A DNA stretch of 64,000 nucleotides from Paracoccus ravus. Lineage in GTDB: Bacteria; Pseudomonadota; Alphaproteobacteria; Rhodobacterales; Rhodobacteraceae. The stretch's first letter is position 1; every line of letters starts with the position of its first letter. The stretch covers positions 1 through 64,000 of the forward strand of contig NZ_SDEB01000007.1 in NCBI RefSeq assembly GCF_004522175.1, read 5' to 3'. Both the position numbers and the translations under genes were made by a program. This document shows positions 1 to 10,925 of this stretch, one piece after another. Below the pieces are notes generated by a model. That model did not search any database. It was not told the origin of the DNA and was given only the letters and a program-made list of their open reading frames with translations.

Positions 1-53
1 GCCTGACGAAGCACAGCCATGATCTGCGGTTCCGTGAAACGGCTCTTTCTCAT
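1..53 (-). CDS. IS3-family transposase OrfA, N-terminal fragment (partial at window edge)
   Basis: Read on the minus strand, an ATG at 53 opens a frame translating as MRKSRFTEPQIMAVLRQ, the typical helix-turn-helix start of IS3-family (IS407/IS511-like) OrfA proteins. A good ribosome site (GAGGAG) lies just upstream. The rest of the element lies outside the window. The insertion sequence should end somewhere between about 90 and 115, because the caspase-like reading frame resumes at 93. The exact terminal repeat could not be fixed, since the other end is not visible. Confidence 0.75.
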   Translation of the reverse strand, partial: MRKSRFTEPQIMAVLRQ

Positions 54-92
54 TCGAATCTCCTCAGCTCACGCTACGAGAAAATTCTACTT

Positions 93-638
93 ATGCAGCC
101 CCTTAACCATGGGGAGGATTACCAGACGTTCGATCTAGATACTGCCTTCACGCGATATCAAAAAGATAAAAACATGATGCTGTTTAGAAACGGCGTGGAC
201 CTGGCAACTGCACTTCTAAGCGAAATATCGACGCCGGGAGACGGGACAATCGTGATAATTGTTGATGCCTGCCGAACAAACCCACTCGATTCGGTGCTAA
301 AGCAAAGATTGGAAGAATCGATTTTTACCGGAAACCCGGTTGAGATGTTGTACAGCAAGCCTCAATACAACGGAAATATTCCACCGGGAATAAAGATAGT
401 CTTCTCAACGAGCAAAGGCGATTCAGCGGAGGACGGGGGAGTAAGCGGAAGTCTCTTTAATATCTTATTTACGCAACAGTTGGAACTGCACAGGGATAAG
501 TCTATAGACGTCGCGCTTTACGAAGCGTCGTTGCAGCTGAGGAAAATTACAGGCGCTACCGGGAAGCTGCAAGATCCTCAATTTTCCGGGATGTTGGACC
601 CATCCCCGCCGCCCACCACATGCATAGGATCGTGCTGA
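93..638 (+). pseudogene. Caspase-like (peptidase C14) protein, 5'-truncated by an IS3 element
   Basis: The 181-residue frame is the C-terminal half of a caspase-like p20 domain. The segment IVIIVDACRTNP carries the expected catalytic cysteine at about residue 60. It is followed by the usual FSTSKGDSAEDGG substrate-pocket strand and the DVALYEASLQLRKITG helix. The first half, with the catalytic histidine (normally a GHG motif about 65 residues before the Cys), is absent, and an IS3 orfA reads away from the break. The ATG at 93 lies in or next to the IS end, so any product would lack half of the active site. I treat it as a broken gene. The next gene starts 18 bases after its stop. Confidence 0.75.
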
Positions 639-656
639 GATAGGAGTAATGATAAA

Positions 657-1514
657 ATGCGCGCACTGTTCGCCTTCGCTTGCCTGTCATTCGCGAGCGC
701 TCCGATAAATGCAGGTTACTCCCAGGGCGCGCCCGTTCTCAGCTATTCTGAGCGAACGGGAAGAATCGAGCTAAACGATGCTAAAGTCATTGCAGAGTCG
801 GGCTATGCTCCCATGCGCATTGAGATACTTTGGTGCAAGAAGGGCGGAGCGCCTGCAGAGTTTGAAGCGTGGACTGCAGCTGGGGCGCTATACGGGGCTA
901 TTCGAAGAGACGCGAATGAGCGATTGGAGAATAATACAGGGCGGATCGGTCTTGCAGTCGGGGTAACAGATATTGTCGCATTACCTTGGGACGGCGAAGA
1001 AGAAGATCAAAGTATGGTATACTCGGACATAACCATAATAGCCTCAATCGCAGATATTGAATCTGATCCCTCGTTCTTCGAAGGAATATCGAAAGACCTC
1101 CCTTTCAGTAAAGTCAACGTGAAAAGTGGCGCCGTTCCAAGAGGATATATAGCACTTCAAATGTGTGTCACCGCGCCGGAGGTGCTCAACGGAAATAGAC
1201 TTTTTATTCAAGTCAAAGATAACACTGATATTGCGCCGTCGGAAAGCGTTCGAATGAAGCTTTTGAAGGAGTATAGCAACATTTGGGTCGCTAAGGGGAT
1301 AGAGGTTGTGGGTAATAGATCCCCCACAAGCAATCAGTTGCGCTATTTTTGGGAGGAAGACAAAGTATCCGCTGATCAGGTCGCGCAAACAATTGAGGGT
1401 TTCACCGGGGTCGAGGCAAAGCCTATTTTTGTCCCAGGTTATCCAAATGTCAGGAAAGGAACTCTAGAGGCATGGTTCGCGACGTTGCCTGAGCGCATTC
1501 CGGAGAATAATTAG
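657..1514 (+). CDS. Exported protein of unknown function
   Basis: This 285-residue protein begins with a probable signal peptide (MRALFAFACLSFASAPINA) after a GGAG ribosome site. I do not recognise the main body. It has few cysteines (two after the signal) and no protease motif. The last 80 residues (from about IWVAKGIEVVG, through LRYFWEEDK, to GTLEAWF) resemble the alpha/beta C-terminal module in some bacterial envelope proteins related to the LytR C-terminal domain; this is a similarity by eye only. It lies between the broken caspase gene and a metalloprotease gene on the same strand. One line counted by hand (1081-1140) has 27 of 60 G/C, well below the core genes, suggesting transfer. Confidence 0.7.
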   Translation: MRALFAFACLSFASAPINAGYSQGAPVLSYSERTGRIELNDAKVIAESGYAPMRIEILWCKKGGAPAEFEAWTAAGALYGAIRRDANERLENNTGRIGLAVGVTDIVALPWDGEEEDQSMVYSDITIIASIADIESDPSFFEGISKDLPFSKVNVKSGAVPRGYIALQMCVTAPEVLNGNRLFIQVKDNTDIAPSESVRMKLLKEYSNIWVAKGIEVVGNRSPTSNQLRYFWEEDKVSADQVAQTIEGFTGVEAKPIFVPGYPNVRKGTLEAWFATLPERIPENN

Positions 1515-1592
1515 GTCTGACTAACTGGGCGATAGCGACTACGGTTCAGAGTGTGATATTCATCTAAAAGGTAATGAGAAGGGGTAATTGAA

Positions 1593-2276
1593 ATGCAGAT
1601 CATCGCCGCAATCGGATTGTTTTTTTGCGTTTCGAATGTGGCATTTGCGCAGTCAAATGTTGGTGATATTTTCTTGCAAACGGGTAAGGATCGCTTAGTC
1701 GTTTTGAAAAGTGGGATTTGGGGCTCTCGGAACATCGATGTCTGTTGGGAAAATCCAGACGCAGCATCATTCGACGACTTGTACTCGGTGATGAGGGCAG
1801 TGGTTCAAACGTGGCAGGTGCATTCCGATTTGAAGTTTGAATGGACCATGAAGTGCGGCAGGAATTCTCGTGGCATACGAGTTTTGGTTGACGACTCTGG
1901 ACCCCGGGCTCGCTTCCTGGGTCGGCATCTCGACGGGAAGAGGAACGGCGTTGTTTTAAACTTCAGTTACAGGAACTGGAGTCCAGTTTGTAGATCAAGT
2001 GAAGCCAAACGACGCGCGTGCAATAAGTCAATCGCGGTGCACGAGTTCGGTCATGCATTAGGATTTTCTCATGAACAGAACCGTCACGACACCCCGGGCG
2101 AATGTGCTTCGCAAAATAATAAGCAGGGTCAATCTGGCGATGTGGAGCTAACTCGTTGGGATATTCGATCCGTGATGAACTATTGCAACCCCACTTACAA
2201 CAATAACGGTAATCTCTCTGTGGGCGATATCGGCGGGCTTCAAGCCGTCTATGGCGTTCCCGCCGGAAAGTCGTGA
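1593..2276 (+). CDS. Exported matrixin-like zinc metalloprotease
   Basis: The 227-residue protein has a signal peptide (MQIIAAIGLFFCVSNVAFAQ). Its zinc-binding helix HEFGHALGFSHEQNRHD fits the metzincin HExxHxxGxxH consensus, with histidines at about residues 150, 154 and 160. About 35 residues later SVMNYCN supplies the Met-turn. These features place it with M10/M12-type metzincins and predict cleavage of proteins in the periplasm or outside the cell. No long propeptide with a cysteine switch is obvious, so latency control is unclear. Several cysteines could form disulfides. It is co-directional with the neighbouring exported genes and preceded by an AAGGGG ribosome site. The substrate is unknown. 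Confidence 0.82.
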   Translation: MQIIAAIGLFFCVSNVAFAQSNVGDIFLQTGKDRLVVLKSGIWGSRNIDVCWENPDAASFDDLYSVMRAVVQTWQVHSDLKFEWTMKCGRNSRGIRVLVDDSGPRARFLGRHLDGKRNGVVLNFSYRNWSPVCRSSEAKRRACNKSIAVHEFGHALGFSHEQNRHDTPGECASQNNKQGQSGDVELTRWDIRSVMNYCNPTYNNNGNLSVGDIGGLQAVYGVPAGKS

Positions 2277-2319
2277 TCTTTTCGTTGAATATCTAAGGTT
2301 TTTTTCGAGGTAGCAAGTC

Positions 2320-2691
2320 ATGTGTACAAGAACGCTGTTAATATTGGCTCTTCTAGTCGTCTCGGGTTGCGAGAATCGTTTTTCACCCTTTCCTCCAGCT
2401 TCAGAGGATGGTTTGGATGGCGAGGGCGTTGCCTACCAAGTCCCAAAGTGGTGTCCCTATATGATCTCGGCAGAAGCGGGGAACCAGTTGATTTCGCTGT
2501 TTGCTCCGGGCTCCGTGACGGTGACAATCGGCGAGGGTGTGAAGATCGCGAAGGACTACTGTGCGAAAGTGAAGGAGCTTGTAGCGTCCCAAGATGGTAA
2601 CCAATCGAAGTCGCCTGATGGCTCGGTCGCTGTAGTCTACAATCAAGGGGGAAAATCTGTCACGATCACGGCGCATCCAGCAGGTAGGTAG
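2320..2691 (+). CDS. Small predicted lipoprotein of unknown function
   Basis: The ORF encodes 123 residues starting MCTRTLLILALLVVSGCENR, with a lipobox (VVSGC) that predicts signal peptidase II cleavage and lipid attachment at Cys17. A GAGG ribosome site lies upstream. The mature part has two further cysteines (WCPY and DYCAK) that could pair, then a polar C-terminus. No family was recognised. Position within the row of exported hydrolases suggests an envelope partner or immunity-like role, but nothing in the sequence proves that. Two overlapping frames of similar length in this segment lack the lipobox and were discarded. Confidence 0.65.
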   Translation: MCTRTLLILALLVVSGCENRFSPFPPASEDGLDGEGVAYQVPKWCPYMISAEAGNQLISLFAPGSVTVTIGEGVKIAKDYCAKVKELVASQDGNQSKSPDGSVAVVYNQGGKSVTITAHPAGR

Positions 2692-2761
2692 TTTCTAAGC
2701 TTGAAACCGCCTCTCAACAAACAACTACGCATTCGGATGATCAACTTGTAGGAAAATCAAG

Positions 2762-3952
2762 ATGAAGTGTTCGTATGTCTCAGTTTTCTTTGTCTGTTAT
2801 GGAAATGCTGCGTTAACGCAAACGTTGGAAGCAGATCCTCATGGACTTTCGCGGGCGCAACTTTACGAAATATTCGTGGTCGACGCAGGGCTTGAAAGCG
2901 ACGAGTTGAAGGCGGCCAAGCGGTTTTTCAAGTTCCCTAACGATGCCGACGACGACTTCATCTATGGCATCGACGTTTCGCACCACAAAGGCCCGATCGA
3001 CTGGTCGAAAACCTTAGGCCAAGGTGTTGAGTTTGTTTACACGAAGGCGACGGAAGGCCAAAACTTCGTCGATCCGCGCTTCCGCGCGAACATCGAAGGC
3101 GCGCGGGCAGTCGGCTATCCGACCGGGGCGTATCATTTCCTGTCGTCTGGAGTTGTTGTAGGCAATCAAGTGAATAATTTTGTCAAGAATTACGGCTCGA
3201 TCCGCGCCGATGGCGATTTGCCGCCGGTTCTGGACCTTGAATGGGATTTCAGCAGTGGCGTGGACCGCTGGGCCAATTTCACGCCGCGGCAGATCGTCGA
3301 CAAGGCCGAGGCTTGGCTTGATGCGATTGAGGCCGAATTCAGTGTGAAGCCGATAATCTACACCAACAAATTCTGGTGGGAAGCCCGCTTGGGTTCAGAA
3401 GGCGAGCGACTGACTGATCACCAGATCTGGATGTCCCGTTACGGCAAATGGGATCAGCCGGGGCCGCCACTGATGGCCGGAAACTTCGACTGGTCAATCT
3501 GGCAGTTCACGGAAGAGGGGGCCGTTGCTGGCGTGTCGGGCGATGTGGACGTCAACAAGTTGGCGCTCGGATTTGAAGCCATGACAGCAATTAACAACCC
3601 GACACCGCCGCCGTGCGAGCTGCCTGCGGCTCCCGCCGCTCAGCATCCGCTGACGGCCGAAGAACTGGCACAGGTTTTCAACGTCCTGCGGATCGAGTTT
3701 GGCGGAAGGCTGGACAGTGGGCAGGCCGCCTTCCTCAACGTCATGGTGAACACCTCCGCGCCCGATGCGATGCGGCGCCTGATCGAGGGTGATGTCCGCA
3801 CGCGGCTGTCCGAGGATGAGCGAACCGACCTTTTCGCGACCGCGCGCGGAATTCTGACTCAAGGTTCGCTGAACCAGCAGCAAGTCGATATTCTGGACGT
3901 ACTTGTCGATGGTGCCTCGGCCGATGCGATACGCTCATGCGTACTGCGATAG
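2762..3952 (+). CDS. GH25-family muramidase (lysozyme) with duplicated C-terminal module
   Basis: The 396-residue protein contains a glycoside hydrolase 25 domain at about residues 68-270. It begins at YGIDVSHHKGPIDW and includes PPVLDLEW. Asp71, Asp158 and Glu160 match the acidic residues that GH25 enzymes use to cut the MurNAc-GlcNAc bond of peptidoglycan. The N-terminus is hydrophobic and probably a signal sequence, followed by a short helical region. After the catalytic domain come two copies of an about 46-residue module (residues 297-342 and 349-394) of unknown role. The gene ends 16 bases inside the serine protease gene, so the two are probably translated together. GH25 enzymes usually come from phages, secreted lysozymes or antagonism loci; no phage genes are near. 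Confidence 0.85.
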   Translation: MKCSYVSVFFVCYGNAALTQTLEADPHGLSRAQLYEIFVVDAGLESDELKAAKRFFKFPNDADDDFIYGIDVSHHKGPIDWSKTLGQGVEFVYTKATEGQNFVDPRFRANIEGARAVGYPTGAYHFLSSGVVVGNQVNNFVKNYGSIRADGDLPPVLDLEWDFSSGVDRWANFTPRQIVDKAEAWLDAIEAEFSVKPIIYTNKFWWEARLGSEGERLTDHQIWMSRYGKWDQPGPPLMAGNFDWSIWQFTEEGAVAGVSGDVDVNKLALGFEAMTAINNPTPPPCELPAAPAAQHPLTAEELAQVFNVLRIEFGGRLDSGQAAFLNVMVNTSAPDAMRRLIEGDVRTRLSEDERTDLFATARGILTQGSLNQQQVDILDVLVDGASADAIRSCVLR

Positions 3953-5469
3953 GTATGATGGCGGCGTTTCTGACAGTTGGCGGGCCGGTGGGGGCGCAGA
4001 ACTCTGCGTCCGGGCTTGAAGCAGCGCTCGCGGCGGGCGAACTCTCTGGTGAGTTGCAGCGCAATGTGGCCGGTGACACCGTGTTCCGACCTCTGGACCC
4101 GTCGTTGCCGTTAGTGTACTTGCCAGAGGGGACGGACTTCCCCGACGGGGCCCTGCGGCGGACGATCTCGGTGACTGGCGCGCTGCGCCCCGACGGTCTG
4201 CTGCAGGTCGAAGGCCTGACGCTGCCGAATCCGTACAGCGGATCGAGTGATGCGGCCTACGTGACTGCCGCCCGTATCGTCGACCGGATCAACGAGGCCA
4301 TCGACCCTGTCAGCTTGCCGATGAGTCCGCTGCCCCGGACGATCGAAGACCCGCACCCAGTCGCGCGCGCTACGAAGAAAGATGTCGATGAAATCATCCG
4401 GTTGTTCGGAGCGGCTCATGCTACACGGGATACCGCCGAGATGCGCCGTCTAGCGACACTGTGGCGCGATCTCAGGATCGAGCTGTTTCAGACCTTCCCC
4501 GATGGAATTGGGCTGAAAAGCGTCTATGGCACCGACGATGTCTATCGCGCCTGGCGCATCCGGCAGATCTTCCGGTCGAGCACTTCTGTGGTCGGCATCG
4601 CCGAAGTAGGCGAGGCCGAACCCCACTGTAGCGGTGTCTTAATCTCGCCGACCCTGATACTGACAGCCTCGCACTGCATCACACGCCCTCTCAGCGAACT
4701 CGAGGTCTTCTTCGGTTTTGTCGAGCTTCCGGGGGGCGGGGCACATCCGCCGATCCGACGGCGCCTGAACGCAAATGCCGTGATCCCGGCAGATACAGCC
4801 GATTGGACGCGGCTGTTGCAGAAGGATTTCGGGCCCGACCTTCTGGATTACGTGGTATTGTCGATCGAGCCTGCGGGAAATGCCGCGGCCATCCCGCTGG
4901 TCGAGGTGGCGCCGGGCATAAAGGACACCCCCGAGCCGCAATGTCTGTCGAGGTCCGTGCAGAACCGCGGCGATCCGCTCTACGTGATCGGCTATCCCGA
5001 ACAAGCCGCGCTTTCAGTGCATACGGCGGCCTATGTCGAATTCCCCTATGCCATCCGGGGCTTCGATCTTCCGGGGCTGGAACTGGACGCTGGATCGGAT
5101 TTCGTCTCGGCCGCAGACACATATGACCGTGTTCTGGTCGAGTTGCAGGACAGCTACATCGGCGAGAACGGCGTCGACCGATCAAGTACCTTTGCGCGGT
5201 TCTACTACCACTCGATGCGTAACTTCGGCCAGCCGAGCCTTGGTATCGTCGCCGACACCTCGCAAGGCAATTCCGGCGGTCCCGTCTATACTCATCGCAA
5301 GGATCAGTGCGTCGTCGGGCTGCTGGTGGCGGGGAAAAGTGGCAACTGGTACGGCGGGCCAACCTGGTTTCAGCACGAAGTGGCCATTCCAATCGAGGCG
5401 ATATTGGATGACATGGAACACCAACTTGGCGCGCAGGCATTTGCCGAATTGGGTCTGGACCTGCGTTAG
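3937..5469 (+). CDS. Exported trypsin-like serine protease (S1 family)
   Basis: This is a 510-residue protein with signal peptide MRTAIGMMAAFLTVGGPVGA. An N-terminal region of about 200 residues precedes a chymotrypsin-fold domain. The catalytic triad can be read as His246 (LTASHC), probably Asp304 (LLDYVVL) and Ser446 (QGNSGGPV). The long N-terminal region could be an inhibitory propeptide or a docking module. Its start overlaps the muramidase gene, and its end overlaps or abuts the caspase-like gene, so the three appear translationally linked. Protease-caspase neighbours suggest a proteolytic cascade in which one enzyme activates another, but this is inference. Confidence 0.87.
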   Translation: MRTAIGMMAAFLTVGGPVGAQNSASGLEAALAAGELSGELQRNVAGDTVFRPLDPSLPLVYLPEGTDFPDGALRRTISVTGALRPDGLLQVEGLTLPNPYSGSSDAAYVTAARIVDRINEAIDPVSLPMSPLPRTIEDPHPVARATKKDVDEIIRLFGAAHATRDTAEMRRLATLWRDLRIELFQTFPDGIGLKSVYGTDDVYRAWRIRQIFRSSTSVVGIAEVGEAEPHCSGVLISPTLILTASHCITRPLSELEVFFGFVELPGGGAHPPIRRRLNANAVIPADTADWTRLLQKDFGPDLLDYVVLSIEPAGNAAAIPLVEVAPGIKDTPEPQCLSRSVQNRGDPLYVIGYPEQAALSVHTAAYVEFPYAIRGFDLPGLELDAGSDFVSAADTYDRVLVELQDSYIGENGVDRSSTFARFYYHSMRNFGQPSLGIVADTSQGNSGGPVYTHRKDQCVVGLLVAGKSGNWYGGPTWFQHEVAIPIEAILDDMEHQLGAQAFAELGLDLR

Positions 5470-8400
5470 GGCCGTCTGTCTTTCGGCTTGGCTGGGGCTT
5501 CCGGCCATGGCCGAGGACGCCAGACCCGAAGTGCTTCTGTTTGTCGCCGGGGTCGGTGACTATACCGAACCGTCGCTGAACAAGCTGCAATACACCGCAC
5601 AGGACGCCGCCGACATTTACGCTCAGTTCGAACGGGTCGCGAAGCTGGCCAAGGGCAGCCGGCTAGTGCGTGGCTTGGCCGGCAAGCCACTGACCCGGGA
5701 CCTATTGGAAGATGAGCTGATCGATTTCAGCAACTACATAGGCCATAATCAGCGCGTCGTCGTCTATTTCGGTGGCCACGGTAAAGTGATCGAGACGACC
5801 GGCCGCAAGCGCCTTCAACTGCTACCCAGTGATTACCGCCCGCCCGACGACGGCAGCAACCGGCCCGGGCGCAACTACCTGTATTGGGACGACCTGAAAG
5901 AGATTCTGAGCAACCAGATCGAATTCGGCGCAGGGCTTACTGGAGTGAAGTTGGTGTTTCTCGTCAACGCCTGCGGCTCGGGGCTGGCGGCGGGTGCGAT
6001 GGCCGCCGAGACCGACCAACGGCTGGTTGACCAGGTCAGCGACCTAGCGAAAGAACTACGTCTAGGCCAGGCGGACATGGCGGTAATCCCCGCCGCCAGC
6101 GGCGACCGCAGCACCTTCGAGCGGACCGAGCTGGGCCGCAGCGAGATGGCCTATTGGCTGATGGCCGCGCTCCGGGGCGAGGCCGATACCTCGCGCGACA
6201 GTGCCATCACTACGGGCGAGCTCTACGATTTCCTTAAGACGCCTCTGAAGCTGCGGCCGCGCCCCGACGGCTTTGCCGACAGCATCCCCGTCGCCGGCAC
6301 CTCCGAACTTCACGCCCGCGCGCAGCTTGAAATGGGCACGGCGCTCGACTTTCTCGCCCGCGGCGCCGGCGGCGCCATCCCGCACGAGATCGCTACCCTT
6401 CTCGGCCGGCAGGCCACCGCGCACCTCCGCTTCGCGCGCGGCCGCGATCCTGCCATCGACGACCGCGCTGCGCTGCGCCTGGCCGCGCGGCTGGATCAGG
6501 CGGAACGCCGCCATATCCTCGACGACCTGGCGGTTCGGGAGCAGGGCGGCACGTTGCATCTCAGTGACCGCGAACGGGATGTGTTCCGACTGGCCGAGGC
6601 CGAACCCGGCATGATGTCCCTGGATGAGCGGTTGAGTATCGTTCGCACCGCTTCGGCCTATTTCATCTATCAAGCACAGCCGTGGCCCACGAGTTTATCA
6701 TACAGATTCAGTGCAGAGAGGGTGCGGGCGGGTTTCATGCATCGGGTCAGCCCCCTCACCCAACCTGTGCATGTCCTGGCTCAGTCCAGTCTTGGTGGAA
6801 ATAGGCCCGACCTTTCATCTTGGGAACCCGCGATCACCGAATTGGCCCCTGAGCAACATGCAGTGATCTCGATTTTCAACTCTTCACGCTGCGACGAGAC
6901 TTGCCCTTTTTCGGATGCCCTAGCCAAAGACCTAGTGAAGCTTCGGGCGCGGACAGCGGGCAAAATCTTCATTATTCTCAATTCGCAGAATGTCGGGGGC
7001 GATGCGGCGCCGCTGTTGGCGGCGGATATTCCGGTCATGGTTGTCTCGGCCGAGACTTGGCACCAATCCACCGGCAAGAACCTAGCGTACGTTGACGCGA
7101 ATGAAATTCTCGCCAAAGCGATTACCGCACCCACGGCCGAAGATTTCGAGCGTGAGCTGCGTTCGGCCAGCAAGGCTTTATGGGAGGTGACCCAACTGAG
7201 GAGGAACACGCCCTCCGGCCCGCATACCCCGTGGCCCGGATTGCGTGTGCAGTTGTTGGCAGAGCGATCCGCCTTGGATGATCTCGGATCTTCCCCCGAC
7301 AAGAGTCTGCTGCGCGCGGTTTCGGATAATTGCCTTGTCGGCGATGTCATCAACTGCCGGTCGACGCCGGCGCTGCAGACGCTAGCGATGGGCGTCGAAT
7401 CCGACGAGGCTCTCAACGTGCTGGATGCGCAGCGCCAATACAGACACGCGATCGACGAACTGCGTGGCGTCGCGTCGGTGCGTAGCGCCAGTCTGGACCA
7501 AGCCCTCGGTGACATCCGCGACCGGCTAATCCGGACGGTCGAGCGCCGTCTCGACGATCTGCCCACTAAAATCGCCGGGAGGCAGATCGTTGTGCAGCCG
7601 TTCTATGCCGAGGAGTACCGCAGCCCTTATCTCCCCGATCTGGTCAAGACCGCCGCCGACGCCGCACTGATCGGCCCCGCTGTCAAGGATCTGGTCGACC
7701 GGTTACACCAGATCACCGGCGGCGGAGCGCCGCTCGATCTGTCGGCCACGGCCAAGGCGCCGGTCGAGATGATCGACGCCCTACAGTTAGAGGCAGAACT
7801 CAAACAGCTGGCCGAGGCGCATCGGAACAGCGAGGATGTCGCCGTCGTCTACATTACCGGCCGAGGTGTCGAGCGCGACGGCCGCCGCTATATCGCCACC
7901 GCCTCGTACGATCCCGATGTCGACGATTCCGATGCCGACGATTCCGATGTCGACGATTCGCACGACCCGCGCGATGAGGGTCTGGTCGATGTCGAAGACA
8001 TCCTCACCCTCCTGATCCGGGTACATGCGCTGGTGATCCTCGACGTGCAGTTCACAGTGCCGACAGACCCCGAACGCCGAGAGGCCCTTTTGGACAAACA
8101 TATAGACGCGGGGCGTGGTATTGCCGTCGAAGTGCCTCCAGCGACGGGCGGCATCGAATTTCTGGGCGATCTGTCTGGGGATGCGCTGCAGGTGGTTCTC
8201 TGGGCCGACGGCGACGTCGCGCAATCGCCGCATCCGGCCTGCGCCGCACATGATCAGGACACGCCGTCGTCCCCTATGGCCGCCGACCTTCTCCACGCGC
8301 TCAATGAGACCAAGGGCGAGACCTACCGTGCCTTCCTTCAACGGGTTGTGGCCGCCGGCTGCGCCGTTCGGACCGCCAGCTACCGGGCACAGGGCGCTCT

Positions 8401-8989
8401 GGACGTGCCGCTGTTCTCGTCTGGCCGAAATGCCCGTGAGATCGCACGGCTCGGCCGCCCCGATCTTACCACCGAGATCGGGCTGCATGTCGCCCATGCC
8501 CTGGCGCAGGATCTAAACGCCATCTTTCCTTCGGATGCCGGGCTGATGACCGAGGCCGCTCTGGTCCTGGCCATCGATACAGGCTTCGGCGACGACTCGG
8601 TTCTGGCGGCCCGTCTGCCGGACGGCGCCCTCGCCAAGGCCGAGCAGCGTCTTGATTCCATGGACGTTGCAAAGCTGGAGCCTGCCGATCTTGCCGCCTA
8701 TTGGGAGTTACGCGCACGCCTGGCGATTGCCGACGGGCGTTTGTCAGACGCCCGCCGCCTAATTCAGTTGCTGCCGCCGGAAATTTTGCGGACCCGCAAC
8801 CTGTCAGACCTCTTGGTCGAGGTGGTTTTGACCTCGATCCGGGCCGACACCGAAAGCGTACTGCTGGAGGCGGTCGAAGCGCTGAGCGCGGCGGAGGGGG
8901 GCGCTGACCCCAGGCTCGACAGCCTCAAGATCCTGCTTGCAGACGAGCGCGCCAAACGTGGCGAGTTTTTTCGCCTTGGTCAAAAATAA
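5441..8989 (+). CDS. Large exported caspase-fold protein, active N-terminal and degenerate C-terminal caspase domain
   Basis: Numbered from a TTG start at 5441, the product has about 1,182 residues. The start is uncertain: the first in-frame ATG (5507) would cut through a credible signal peptide (VRAVCLSAWLGLPAMA), so I prefer the upstream TTG that overlaps the protease gene. Residues 30-300 form a peptidase C14 caspase-like domain with His113 (YFGGHG) and Cys178 (LVNACGSG). A poorly recognised middle part follows. Near residues 795-980 a second caspase-like fold appears: VVYITGRGV has Arg808 where His is expected, and VILDVQF has Gln870 in place of Cys, so it should be inactive. The C-terminal 200 residues look helical and repeat-like. 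Partner and substrate are unknown. Confidence 0.82.
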   Translation: MPNWVWTCVRAVCLSAWLGLPAMAEDARPEVLLFVAGVGDYTEPSLNKLQYTAQDAADIYAQFERVAKLAKGSRLVRGLAGKPLTRDLLEDELIDFSNYIGHNQRVVVYFGGHGKVIETTGRKRLQLLPSDYRPPDDGSNRPGRNYLYWDDLKEILSNQIEFGAGLTGVKLVFLVNACGSGLAAGAMAAETDQRLVDQVSDLAKELRLGQADMAVIPAASGDRSTFERTELGRSEMAYWLMAALRGEADTSRDSAITTGELYDFLKTPLKLRPRPDGFADSIPVAGTSELHARAQLEMGTALDFLARGAGGAIPHEIATLLGRQATAHLRFARGRDPAIDDRAALRLAARLDQAERRHILDDLAVREQGGTLHLSDRERDVFRLAEAEPGMMSLDERLSIVRTASAYFIYQAQPWPTSLSYRFSAERVRAGFMHRVSPLTQPVHVLAQSSLGGNRPDLSSWEPAITELAPEQHAVISIFNSSRCDETCPFSDALAKDLVKLRARTAGKIFIILNSQNVGGDAAPLLAADIPVMVVSAETWHQSTGKNLAYVDANEILAKAITAPTAEDFERELRSASKALWEVTQLRRNTPSGPHTPWPGLRVQLLAERSALDDLGSSPDKSLLRAVSDNCLVGDVINCRSTPALQTLAMGVESDEALNVLDAQRQYRHAIDELRGVASVRSASLDQALGDIRDRLIRTVERRLDDLPTKIAGRQIVVQPFYAEEYRSPYLPDLVKTAADAALIGPAVKDLVDRLHQITGGGAPLDLSATAKAPVEMIDALQLEAELKQLAEAHRNSEDVAVVYITGRGVERDGRRYIATASYDPDVDDSDADDSDVDDSHDPRDEGLVDVEDILTLLIRVHALVILDVQFTVPTDPERREALLDKHIDAGRGIAVEVPPATGGIEFLGDLSGDALQVVLWADGDVAQSPHPACAAHDQDTPSSPMAADLLHALNETKGETYRAFLQRVVAAGCAVRTASYRAQGALDVPLFSSGRNAREIARLGRPDLTTEIGLHVAHALAQDLNAIFPSDAGLMTEAALVLAIDTGFGDDSVLAARLPDGALAKAEQRLDSMDVAKLEPADLAAYWELRARLAIADGRLSDARRLIQLLPPEILRTRNLSDLLVEVVLTSIRADTESVLLEAVEALSAAEGGADPRLDSLKILLADERAKRGEFFRLGQK
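7916..7960 (+). repeat. Three tandem 15-bp units inside the caspase-like gene
   Basis: Three consecutive copies of GATGTCGACGATTCC (copy 2 has one and copy 3 one substitution) encode an acidic stretch of the type DVDDS-DADDS-DVDDS. The repeat sits in the second, degenerate caspase fold, between the strands carrying the substituted His and Cys positions. In-frame expansion or contraction would only change loop length. Confidence 0.85.
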
Positions 8990-9310
8990 TCGTCCCACGG
9001 GGCGCCTATCCTTCGTTAGGGGCACGTAAAACCTTGTCTGATTAGATATTGTGGGACACCAGATATTAGCCGGTCAACAACCGAACCCGAACCGTTCATT
9101 CGCCCAGCCCCAACGAACGACTGCTCCCCGCCCCTCGCGGCGAATCCGACTGCGATCTCGCTGCGGCACGTCCGAACGGCTGCTCCGACAAGTTGCTGCG
9201 GCTGCCACGCCGCACCGCCATCAGGCTGCTCTCCGCCCGATTCCGTGGAAAAACAGCCGTTCGCTGACGCAGAACATCGACCACTGAAGAGGGCGCGAGT
9301 GACTTCCCTG
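8990..9310. other. Gene-free stretch between caspase-like gene and IS1182 transposase
   Basis: No convincing coding sequence, RNA gene or terminator was found in these 320 bases. Frames here are short, arginine-rich and lack ribosome sites. The left end of the IS1182 element probably falls inside it, near 9241, so the rest is residual island DNA. Confidence 0.5.
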
Positions 9311-10770
9311 TCAGGCTTTTCGCGGTTGCTGCGGTGCAGGAAGGATCTTTGCCAGTTTCCGGAGGTTCTGGGCGGTGGCGGCGAGGAGAAATTCGTCATT
9401 CGCACCGCAGGGTCCACGTAATCGGAGCCGGTTCAGGCCAAGAATCCGTTTGAGGTGGGCAAAGAGCATCTCGACCTTCTTCCTCAGCTTCATCGAGATC
9501 ACGTATTGGTCGGTTTTCGCGATATCGCGGGCGACCTGCCGGGCGTCTTCATGTTCCTCGCGGGTGATCTTGCGGGCATCAGCATTCGGGCAGCACTTCG
9601 CCTTGGAAGGACAGGCCTGGCAGACCTCTTTGAGCGCCCCATAGCGGGCTGTGCCCTTACCAGTCGGGCCTCGGTTTGGGTCGGAATAGTTCCGGCGGAA
9701 CTGCTTCAGAGTTTGGCCCTCGGGGCAGATATATTGATCGTTCTCCGCATCCCACTCGAAGTCGGCACGGGTCCAGGTTCCGTCGCTTCTTCCTGACTTG
9801 TCAAAGACCGGAATGTGTGGGGCGATTTTGCGCTTGACCAGCCAGCCCAGCATCGGCCCGGTGCCGTAGGCCGTGTCTGCGATCAGGCGCTCGGGGTGCA
9901 GGTCAAACCTGGCCTTCACGCGCTCCAGCATGGTCTTGGTCGAACCGACCTCGGCCTGCCGTATGGACCGCGTCGCCTCCACGTCAACGATGACACCATG
10001 GTCGGTGTCGATCAGGTAATTGTCGGAATAGCTGAAGAATGCCGGACCTTTGCGGGCCGCGGTCCACTGGCTGGCCGGGTCGGAATGCGACGTGAACTTG
10101 GGCTGGACCTCGCTGGCCGCGCCGAAGGCGGCTTCGTCCAGGGTGTCGAGATAATCACGAACGGCCCGGGGCGCGTCGGCGGGATCGATCTGCCCGGCGT
10201 CCCAGTCGTCCTTCGGTGTCGAGTTCTGCTTGTTGGCATCCGCCTCGATCAGACTGGCGTCGATGGCCATGCGCTGGCCGCTGACGAGGCCTTCCTCGAT
10301 GCACCGCGCAACGGTCGTTTCGAACAGATGCCGCAGCAATTCGCTGTCGCGGAAGCGCCCGTGCCGGTTCTTCGAGAACGTGGAATGGTCCGGGACACGG
10401 TCACTCAGATCAAGGCCACAAAACCACCGGTAAGCCAGGTTCAGATGCACCTCCTCGCAGAGCCGCCGCTCGGACCGGATGCCGAAGCAATACCCGACCA
10501 AAAGCATCCTGATCAGCAGTTCAGGGTCGACCGACGGGCGCCCGGTATGGCTGTAGAGATCGGCGAGGTAAGTCCGGATCTCCGACAGATCCACGAACCG
10601 GTCAATCGAGCGCAGGAGGTGGCTCTGGGGCATATGGTCCTCAAGCGAGAACTCGTAGAATAGCGCCGGTTGCGCCTCCTGCCGCGGTCCCATCATCGCC
10701 GATCCTCCCACCCACTGCGGGAATTGAATCAGCCGAGGGGACTTCGATCAAGGACGAGTTTTTCAACGAA
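9241..10770 (-). mobile_element. IS1182-family insertion sequence (ends approximate)
   Basis: The element carries one complete transposase gene. A weak pair of ends supports the limits: TTCCGTGGAAAAAC at 9241 on the plus strand resembles TTCGTTGAAAAAC read inwards from 10770 on the minus strand. The match is imperfect and no target duplication was identified, so both limits could be off by tens of bases. Confidence 0.45.
9311..10696 (-). CDS. IS1182-family transposase
   Basis: The 461-residue protein has the layout of IS1182 transposases: an N-terminal DUF772-type DNA-binding region (HLLRSIDRFVDL, then GRPSVDPELLIRMLLVGYCFG) and a DDE catalytic domain with aspartates in MAIDASLIEADAN and LIADTAYGTG. 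A cysteine cluster (CQACPSKAKCC) lies near the C-terminus, as is usual for this family. I chose the ATG at 10696 because GGAGG lies seven bases upstream; a GTG 15 bases earlier would include the ribosome site itself. The frame is uninterrupted, so the element could still be active. It lies directly after the exported-hydrolase row and reads towards it. Confidence 0.93.
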   Translation of the reverse strand: MMGPRQEAQPALFYEFSLEDHMPQSHLLRSIDRFVDLSEIRTYLADLYSHTGRPSVDPELLIRMLLVGYCFGIRSERRLCEEVHLNLAYRWFCGLDLSDRVPDHSTFSKNRHGRFRDSELLRHLFETTVARCIEEGLVSGQRMAIDASLIEADANKQNSTPKDDWDAGQIDPADAPRAVRDYLDTLDEAAFGAASEVQPKFTSHSDPASQWTAARKGPAFFSYSDNYLIDTDHGVIVDVEATRSIRQAEVGSTKTMLERVKARFDLHPERLIADTAYGTGPMLGWLVKRKIAPHIPVFDKSGRSDGTWTRADFEWDAENDQYICPEGQTLKQFRRNYSDPNRGPTGKGTARYGALKEVCQACPSKAKCCPNADARKITREEHEDARQVARDIAKTDQYVISMKLRKKVEMLFAHLKRILGLNRLRLRGPCGANDEFLLAATAQNLRKLAKILPAPQQPRKA

Positions 10771-10925
10771 ATAAGCCCTTTGAGCCAGGGCAGACCATCT
10801 TGCAGCGCCGGGCGTGAGCGGTGACTATGGCCCTTGAGTCAAACCATTCGCCCCCAAGAGCGATGACGCTTCGTGTATTCGTATCTGGTGTTAAGCCCAG
10901 TACCCCAGGAAGCCCTCTGGAGGCG

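What the first reader, a model, noticed from the sequence alone, without database searches (positions are those of the whole stretch)
93..8989. A row of exported hydrolases: caspase, matrixin, lipoprotein, GH25 muramidase, trypsin, caspase
Seven co-directional genes, nearly all with secretion signals, combine proteases of three catalytic types with a peptidoglycan hydrolase and two proteins of unknown function. Several ends overlap. Caspase- and trypsin-like proteins are known as effectors in cytoplasmic NTP-dependent conflict systems, but here the machinery is exported and has no STAND ATPase, kinase or phage gene. A cell-envelope lysis, predator/competitor attack or extracellular proteolytic cascade is possible. 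I know of no described system with this composition.
Basis: partly seen in the sequence, partly recalled or inferred. Interest (0 to 1): 0.85.

Follow-up and report, generated by a model that had tools for sequence, protein, structure and literature searches.

The report
Exported protease and wall-lysis gene island
A bacterium carries a mobile row of exported protein-cutting enzymes plus a cell-wall-cutting enzyme, and parts of the same set turn up on rhizobial plasmids, in chromosome islands and beside phage genes, which suggests a little-explored kind of weapon or suicide system working outside the cytoplasm.

Summary
Largely right: six intact co-directional genes (unknown, metzincin 'matrixin', lipoprotein, GH25 muramidase, trypsin, caspase) lie within 9 kb with small gaps or overlaps and export-like N-termini. 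The first 'caspase' is a remnant: window 1-123 is the end of a multicopy IS3-family element, which holds its ATG; the catalytic-His half is gone. An IS1182 element closes the other side.

Parts of the row recur. (1) Matrixin directly followed by a trypsin-like gene: 17 of 83 matrixins in 80 genome loci, 12 of the 16 alphaproteobacterial loci. (2) GH25 with an N-terminal extension (invariant Ser-Arg, then F-x-F/L-P) followed by a caspase: all 6 relatives found, versus 0 of 29 GH25s without the motif. In five rhizobial plasmids that caspase is fused to, or followed by, a second GH25. Each module was also seen once in a viral contig, as a low-GC cassette beside phage structural genes.

Best reading (0.4): a mobile, exported proteolytic cascade that activates a pro-muramidase, for self-lysis or conflict. 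Recurrence of the modules is well supported; cascade and trigger are inferred. Nine literature searches listed no description of it.

The parts
1..123 (-). end of an IS3-family insertion sequence at the contig edge; contains the ATG of the first-stage 'caspase'
   Evidence: same bases at 11 other contig edges, 100%; 97.6% to the end of an IS3-family element of P. aminophilus
124..638 (+). 5'-truncated caspase (C14) remnant, Cys half only (IVDACRTNP), His half lost
   Evidence: Pfam C14 3.9e-05 over profile 120-228/233; local caspase profile 4.4e-13
657..1514 (+). protein of unknown function, 285 aa, export-like N-terminus
   Evidence: no Pfam match over cut-off, no PADLOC or PHROG match; signal rule passed; AF2 without alignment pLDDT 35, unusable
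1593..2276 (+). matrixin/astacin-like metzincin protease, HEFGHALGFSHE and SVMNY intact
2320..2691 (+). lipoprotein (VVSGC, lipobox by eye), 123 aa, unknown
2762..3952 (+). GH25 muramidase with N-terminal extension (invariant S-R, F-x-F-P-x-D) and a C-terminal extension of about 100 aa; D71 and D158-x-E160 present
   Evidence: Pfam 3.7e-39; alignments A2, A3; tree
3937..5469 (+). trypsin-like serine protease, export-like N-terminus, TASHC and DTSQGNSGGP (Asp at the S1 position)
5441..8989 (+). large caspase: N-terminal C14 domain with His (YFGGHG) and Cys (VNACGSG); weak second caspase-like stretch without the dyad near residues 780-880
   Evidence: Pfam C14 1.6e-08; profile; start TTG 5441 inferred; BLAST of the second stretch to two other caspases E 0.003 and 0.015
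9224..10778 (-). IS1182-family element, transposase ORF 9311-10711
   Evidence: up to 84% identity to transposases annotated IS1182 family or transposase on plasmids, mostly of Rhodobacterales; ORF

Best explanation
The row is an IS-bracketed, horizontally acquired island that joins two exported modules: matrixin+trypsin and GH25 muramidase+caspase. I propose that the proteins go through Sec to the periplasm (in a Gram-negative cell that is where signal peptides lead), that the muramidase is made as a pro-enzyme with its catalytic domain behind an N-terminal extension, and that the Arg/Lys-type trypsin and/or the caspase cut that extension, for instance at the invariant Ser-Arg, when an envelope signal (phage adsorption or DNA entry, or attack by another cell) starts the protease cascade. 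The released muramidase then opens the wall: a self-lysis (abortive) or interbacterial conflict module without any NTPase. Shown: the genes, intact catalytic motifs, export-like N-termini, recurrence of the two modules, mobile context. Inferred: location in the periplasm, zymogen activation, trigger, benefit.
For: Recurrence: a trypsin-like gene directly downstream of matrixin for 17 of 83 matrixins in 80 genome loci (12 of the 16 loci with alphaproteobacterial titles). GH25 with the S-R/FxFP-type extension followed by a caspase in all 6 relatives found; GH25s without it 0 of 29. The 6 motif GH25s are one clade (97/98); with the viral one 89/92, not starred. Five plasmids hold caspase plus second GH25, four of them as one protein, which ties protease and muramidase physically. 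Peptidoglycan-linked neighbours of matrixin/trypsin: M23 in L032, L090, L096; PG_binding_1 in L028, L054, L071, L090; Rv2525c-like GH in L094. Export: 54 of 55 hand-picked cluster genes in 9 relatives pass a crude, lax signal rule versus 14 of 34 background genes. Asp at the trypsin S1 position in 3 of 33 trypsin hits (31 with a recognisable Ser motif), the three that adjoin a caspase: window, L094, L032. Mobility: IS on both sides, plasmids, low-GC cassettes beside phage genes, a low-GC block between transposase-like ORFs in a congener, patchy distribution (strong matrixin match in 2 of 125 genomes of the genus, own included).
Against: No experiment. No regulator, sensor or immunity gene was recognised. 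The full set is not seen twice as one operon: trypsin and large caspase of the window have no close homologues in the searches made. The GC gradient allows stepwise assembly of unrelated genes. A broken first gene means the local copy may be decaying. The trypsin profile was seeded partly with matrixin-neighbouring trypsins, which favours the adjacency count, and 66 of 83 matrixins have no such neighbour. Caspases are near matrixin in only 3 of 80 genome loci. The GH25 motif was widened (F-x-F/L-P) after seeing the viral member. Sec export could end outside the cell if the host has a type II system (not tested).
Confidence: 0.4

Rival explanations
1. Secreted attack or feeding set: the proteases and the muramidase leave the cell and digest competitors, prey or host material; the caspase matures the others.
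For: Exported hydrolases of several kinds together; several relatives of the matrixin come from Myxococcus, Corallococcus and Pyxidicoccus; other wall or polysaccharide hydrolases (M23, glucosaminidase, GH46) in related loci.
Against: Gram-negative Sec export alone stops in the periplasm (recalled); cassettes beside phage structural genes and IS-flanked low-GC islands fit conflict cargo better than a feeding pathway; caspases are unusual in exoenzyme sets (recalled).
Confidence: 0.25
2. Chance row: IS elements collected several exported hydrolase genes of separate origin with no common function.
For: GC 0.48 to 0.63 along the row; IS on both sides; the exact gene set was not found elsewhere; the first gene is broken.
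Against: The same two modules recur as neighbours in different genera, plasmids and viral contigs; overlapping ends GH25/trypsin/caspase.
Confidence: 0.2
3. Phage-type lysis or superinfection-exclusion cargo: the modules are phage accessory genes that change or burst the host envelope for the benefit of the phage.
For: Viral contig L202 (has an integrase) carries lipoprotein-matrixin-trypsin between head and tail genes; L205 carries GH25-caspase next to neck and terminase genes. PHROGs match the GH25 as endolysin.
Against: One viral contig seen for each module in pattern-limited scans; another viral contig with matrixin (L203) has no trypsin neighbour; none in 50,697 phage records for the two proteins tried; the other copies seen are on plasmids or bacterial contigs; no phage structural gene in the row; in L205 phage genes lie on one side only, the other side is an unknown ORF and the contig end.
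Confidence: 0.15

Closest known systems
NucA-trypsin 'System 3' of NTP-dependent conflict systems (Kaur et al. 2020, PMC7159879; section 32 read; other passages)
   Same: mostly Alphaproteobacteria; several peptidases together (trypsin, subtilisin), a proposed proteolytic cascade, a lysozyme-like EAD1 effector; S. terangae encodes an EAD1-caspase near its exported set
   Different: window row has no NucA nuclease and no EAD1; export-like N-termini; section 32 names no matrixin, caspase or GH25 and does not speak of secretion (it mentions TM segments)
CARD-NLR/gasdermin-type systems and LypABC of Caulobacter (PMC13236601; passages seen)
   Same: trypsin-like proteases needed for cell lysis, there for release of gene transfer agents
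   Different: those have an NLR-like ATPase; the words periplasm, signal peptide and peptidoglycan do not occur in that main text
Metacaspases fused to or in operons with peptidoglycan amidases (Asplund-Samuelsson et al. 2012, PMC3501461; passages seen)
   Same: four metacaspases fused to Amidase_2, 11 with a peptidoglycan-binding domain; N-terminal helices that may be signal peptides; [quoted passage not shown]
   Different: 'trypsin' and 'lysozyme' do not occur in that text (GH25 was not looked for); the Rhizobium operon could not be compared, its figure is not held
GH25 muramidases (closest PDB: 2wag, 1jfx)
   Same: catalytic domain and residues
   Different: N-terminal extension not covered by any of the 11 PDB matches (best stretches start at profile position 90 or later of 324)

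Membership tests
Peptidase C14 (caspase), large gene 5441-8989 | p20 domain with His-Cys dyad | tested here: met
   Pfam 1.6e-08; YFGGHG and LVNACGSG
Peptidase C14 (caspase), first ORF 93-638 | His-Cys dyad | tested here: not met
   only profile 120-228 present; IS end in place of the His half
Metzincin (matrixin/astacin) | HExxHxxGxxH and Met-turn | tested here: met
   HEFGHALGFSHE, SVMNY; aligned with 6 relatives; Pfam M10 and Astacin over cut-off
GH25 muramidase | catalytic Asp and Asp-x-Glu | tested here: met
   D71, D158-x-E160 invariant in A3
Trypsin (S1) | His and Ser motifs; Asp at the S1 site for Arg/Lys preference | tested here: met
   TASHC, DTSQGNSGGP; numbering recalled, specificity itself not tested
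NucA-trypsin conflict System 3 | NucA (Endonuclease NS) component | tested here: not met
   no such Pfam match in the 7 products; left of the contig edge unknown
NucA-trypsin conflict System 3 | EAD1 domain (in a subset of these systems) | tested here: not met
   none in the row; present near the S. terangae set, PF19955 1.1e-09
CARD-NLR / gasdermin systems | NLR/STAND ATPase plus gasdermin or other effector | tested here: not met
   no Pfam match to such domains in the 7 products
Known anti-phage system (PADLOC 2023) | match to its protein models | tested here: not met
   among the 7 products only two weak trypsin hits, E 0.0017 and 0.0043
Phage lysis cassette | holin/spanin and phage context | tested here: not met
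   PHROG matches in the row: endolysin-type and one unknown family for the GH25, a protease family for the trypsin, nothing else; right flank is IS1182 and uvrB; left flank unknown
Exported (Sec) protein set | signal peptides | tested here: inconclusive
   crude rule 5 of 6; caspase signal depends on a TTG start; no SignalP or experiment

The most novel reading that the evidence does not exclude
A Sec-exported, NTPase-free proteolytic death pathway: metzincin, Arg/Lys-type trypsin and caspase act in the periplasm as sensor and activator of a pro-muramidase (or other wall hydrolase), a periplasmic counterpart of caspase-gasdermin lysis, assembled from swappable modules that travel in temperate phages, rhizobial plasmids and IS-flanked islands.
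Probability: 0.25. Interest if true: 0.9.

Novelty: new variant of a known kind. Interest (0 to 1): 0.7.

Why it matters
Caspases and trypsins of bacterial conflict systems are mostly discussed as parts of NTPase-controlled systems (PMC7159879, PMC8195603, passages). Here caspases, trypsins and metzincins recur with export-like N-termini and beside, or fused to, wall hydrolases, on mobile DNA. If the cascade reading holds, it gives a direct, testable role for exported bacterial caspases and a new place (the periplasm) where infection or attack can be sensed and answered.

Tried and rejected
Whole row as one conserved operon: rejected; no second locus with the same order was found. Trypsin in genome contigs by peptide patterns: 112 stretches, no relative. 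Caspase and trypsin in plasmids: no match; caspase remnant in plasmids: none. Trypsin over 390 genomes of the order: 15 positive including own, the other 14 with E 5e-6 or weaker and part of the domain only. PF00656 in the own genome found only a different C14 protein and missed both window caspases, so its negative is not used. Missing half of the first caspase: 10 contigs with the other IS end, none fits by eye. AF2 on the unknown protein and on the second caspase-like stretch: pLDDT 35 and 44.5, not used. GH25 in Rhizobiaceae: 268 of 297 genomes match, best 135 bits; four loci fetched, no motif, no caspase. A first caspase profile with a too strict motif filter kept 3 of 18 fetched domains and was rebuilt. 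Promoter and terminator scans at chance level. Caspase near matrixin is not the rule: 3 of 80 genome loci by the local profile (L065, L073, L094), plus plasmid loci L028 and L032; a caspase-like gene lies about 10 kb from the L045 matrixin (L160).

Limits of counts. GH25 plasmid records: 217 matched, 9 were fetched; 5 have motif and caspase, 4 neither. The 29 motif-negative GH25s are L161-L180 (some on short contigs), L038, L184, L183 and L185 (caspase absent by annotation only), L206 (motif absent by eye), L220-L223; one of them, L174, has a trypsin-like ORF about 2.5 kb away. Of 11 viral loci with GH25 I examined 2 (L205, L206); of 3 with matrixin 2 (L202, L203). Of the 17 genome loci with matrixin-trypsin, a peptidoglycan-linked neighbour was seen in 7 (L045 by eye from likeness to L028's propeller, L054, L069 below the Pfam cut-off, L071, L090, L094, L096); the neighbours of the other 10 were scanned little or not at all. 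Recalled, not from a call: S1-pocket numbering and trypsin specificity, that Sec export leads to the periplasm, meaning of lipobox.

Papers: PMC7159879 section 32 and passages; PMC8195603, PMC3501461 and PMC13236601 passages; PMC6426788 start of abstract in listings only. Searches for print: (two listed nothing); none listed a paper whose title or abstract start describes an exported caspase-GH25 or matrixin-trypsin module. Subscription journals and preprints are not held.
Full report
What is in the window. The window is the first 64 kb of contig C67 of a 4.2-Mb genome. The row occupies 124-8989. Bases 1-123 are the end of an IS3-family element that recurs at 11 other contig edges (97.6% to a P. 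aminophilus copy). They hold the ATG of the first-stage 'caspase', whose C14 match covers only the Cys half. So the row starts with a broken gene, and the assembly cannot show what lies left of it. Ten contigs with the opposite IS end show, by eye, neither the missing half nor a matching target duplication. On the right the row is followed by an IS1182-family element (9224-10778) and then by uvrB and housekeeping-type genes (read from the translations). Order from 657: unknown protein, metzincin, lipoprotein, GH25, trypsin, large caspase. Intergenic distances are 18-78 bp; the last three genes overlap.

Are they intact enzymes? The metzincin keeps HEFGHALGFSHE and SVMNY, the GH25 its Asp and Asp-x-Glu, the trypsin TASHC and GNSGGP with Asp six residues before Ser, the large caspase His and Cys. 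A second caspase-like stretch near residues 780-880 lacks both catalytic residues (weak BLAST to two other caspases, E 0.003 and 0.015). The signal-like N-terminus of the caspase requires a TTG start at 5441.

Foreign and mosaic. GC rises gene by gene, 0.482, 0.495, 0.499, 0.530, 0.570, 0.618, 0.633, against 0.645 for uvrB. The large caspase has no match in 100 relatives; the trypsin has only partial-domain similarity in 14 of 389 other genomes of the order; the metzincin has a strong match in 2 of 125 genomes of the genus, own included, and weak ones (E 6e-6 or worse, in much longer ORFs) in 13 more.

Module 1, metzincin+trypsin. The metzincin alignment brought 80 genome loci. For 17 of 83 metzincin genes there a trypsin-like gene follows directly on the same strand, mostly overlapping or within a few bases; 12 of the 16 loci with alphaproteobacterial titles are positive, and also single loci of Desulfobulbaceae, Burkholderiales, Acidobacteria, Nitrosospira and an unclassified proteobacterium. 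Some blocks are longer: Rhizobium leguminosarum (L032), Mesorhizobium (L090) and Tropicimonas (L096) share a protein of 232-261 aa and a large M23-peptidase protein; Hyphomonadaceae (L039), Mesorhizobium and Tropicimonas share an amidohydrolase. S. terangae (L028) and two Rhodobacteraceae/Roseobacter loci (L069, L071) have, after the trypsin, a beta-propeller-like protein with a peptidoglycan-binding end (below Pfam's cut-off in L069). A congener of the window organism (G005) holds five genes collinear with Tropicimonas, GC 0.49-0.56, among ORFs of GC about 0.6 that look by eye like transposases.

Module 2, GH25+caspase. The window GH25 belongs to a subfamily with an N-terminal extension bearing an invariant Ser-Arg and F-x-F/L-P. 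The members found outside the window are the first gene of a pair in five rhizobial plasmid loci (S. terangae, R. ruizarguesonis, R. leguminosarum, R. lusitanum twice) and one viral contig. In all six the next gene encodes a caspase; in four plasmids it is fused to a second GH25, in the fifth a caspase ORF is followed by a GH25 ORF. The plasmid records are 5 of the 9 fetched from 217 with a GH25 match. Stand-alone GH25s without the motif: 24, 4 and 1, none with a caspase in the fetched DNA (L183 and L185 judged by annotation). Tree: motif GH25s one clade 97/98, second-domain GH25s one clade 95/91; with the viral member 89/92, not starred. In the window the order is GH25-trypsin-caspase, so the caspase is one gene further away.

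Both modules together. S. terangae has metzincin, trypsin, propeller on one strand and lipoprotein-like protein, GH25, caspase-GH25 on the other within about 10 kb, plus an EAD1-caspase. Aurantimonas (L094) has caspase, trypsin and a Rv2525c-like glycoside hydrolase on one strand and metzincin and trypsin on the other. R. leguminosarum (L032) has caspase, trypsin, M23, metzincin, CHAT-TPR and subtilase on one strand. Of 33 trypsin hits only the window, L094 (552-1466) and L032 (5057-5965) have Asp at the S1 position; these three adjoin a caspase gene. Two of the 33 have no recognisable Ser motif.

Phage link. Viral contig L202 (with an integrase) carries lipoprotein, metzincin, trypsin at GC 0.58-0.61 between capsid/protease and DUF6441 genes (0.70-0.72) and a tail terminator (0.67). 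Viral contig L205 carries the GH25-caspase pair at GC 0.47-0.49, with neck and terminase genes (0.60-0.62) on one side, and an unknown ORF (0.64) and the contig end on the other. Such cases look rare: one seen per module in the scans made (not all hits examined), and none among 50,697 phage records for the two proteins tried. A further viral contig with the metzincin (L203) lacks the trypsin.

Interpretation. The results support (my estimate 0.85) a family of exported, modular, mobile protease/wall-hydrolase cassettes. How it works is inferred. The extension with an invariant Ser-Arg in front of the muramidase, the Arg/Lys-type S1 residue in caspase-linked trypsins, the preference of orthocaspases for positively charged residues (PMC6426788, abstract start in listing), and the caspase-muramidase fusions all point to proteolytic control of a wall hydrolase. 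Export plus wall hydrolysis in a Gram-negative host means danger to self unless controlled, which suits an abortive or conflict function; scattered, low-GC, IS-, plasmid- and phage-linked distribution suits that too. Secreted attack or feeding, phage cargo and a chance row remain possible (0.25, 0.15, 0.2).

Against what is known. Kaur et al. 2020 describe alphaproteobacterial NucA-trypsin systems with several peptidases, EAD1-linked lysozymes and a proposed cascade; the window row lacks NucA and EAD1 and its proteins look exported, so it is not filed as a member. LypABC and related CARD-NLR systems share trypsin-dependent lysis but have an ATPase. Metacaspases fused to amidases were noted in 2012, a precedent for protease-wall-hydrolase coupling. 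PADLOC's models give only two weak hits to the trypsin.

Noticed in passing
window 124-8989: GC and GC3 rise gene by gene along the row (0.48 to 0.63; GC3 0.49 to 0.74), unexplained; stepwise acquisition or different ages are possible
   Followed up: partly
L202 4285-7156 (viral contig): lipoprotein-matrixin-trypsin cassette of low GC between head and tail genes of an integrase-bearing phage contig
   Followed up: partly
L205 815-3725 (viral contig): GH25-caspase pair, GC 0.47-0.49, beside neck and terminase genes near a contig end
   Followed up: partly
L182 9879-11797 (R. lusitanum p_3): caspase and GH25 that are one protein in four relatives are two overlapping ORFs here
   Followed up: no
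L012 184-1749 (own genome, contig C5): a different caspase-like protein (C14 match over profile 3-68) in the same genome; by eye it has a signal peptide and peptidoglycan-binding-like repeats
   Followed up: no
L028 19496-20563: EAD1-caspase beside the exported set in S. terangae, a possible bridge to EAD conflict systems
   Followed up: no
L181 12943-17816: AAA ATPase and patatin genes downstream of the GH25/caspase-GH25 pair in R. leguminosarum, defence-like neighbours
   Followed up: no
L160 14450-17331: caspase-like protein followed by a GH46-family protein near a matrixin-trypsin-propeller block in R. phaseoli
   Followed up: no
own genome contig edges: the IS3-family element has 12 right ends (window included) and 10 left ends at contig edges, so it is multicopy and breaks the assembly
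   Followed up: partly
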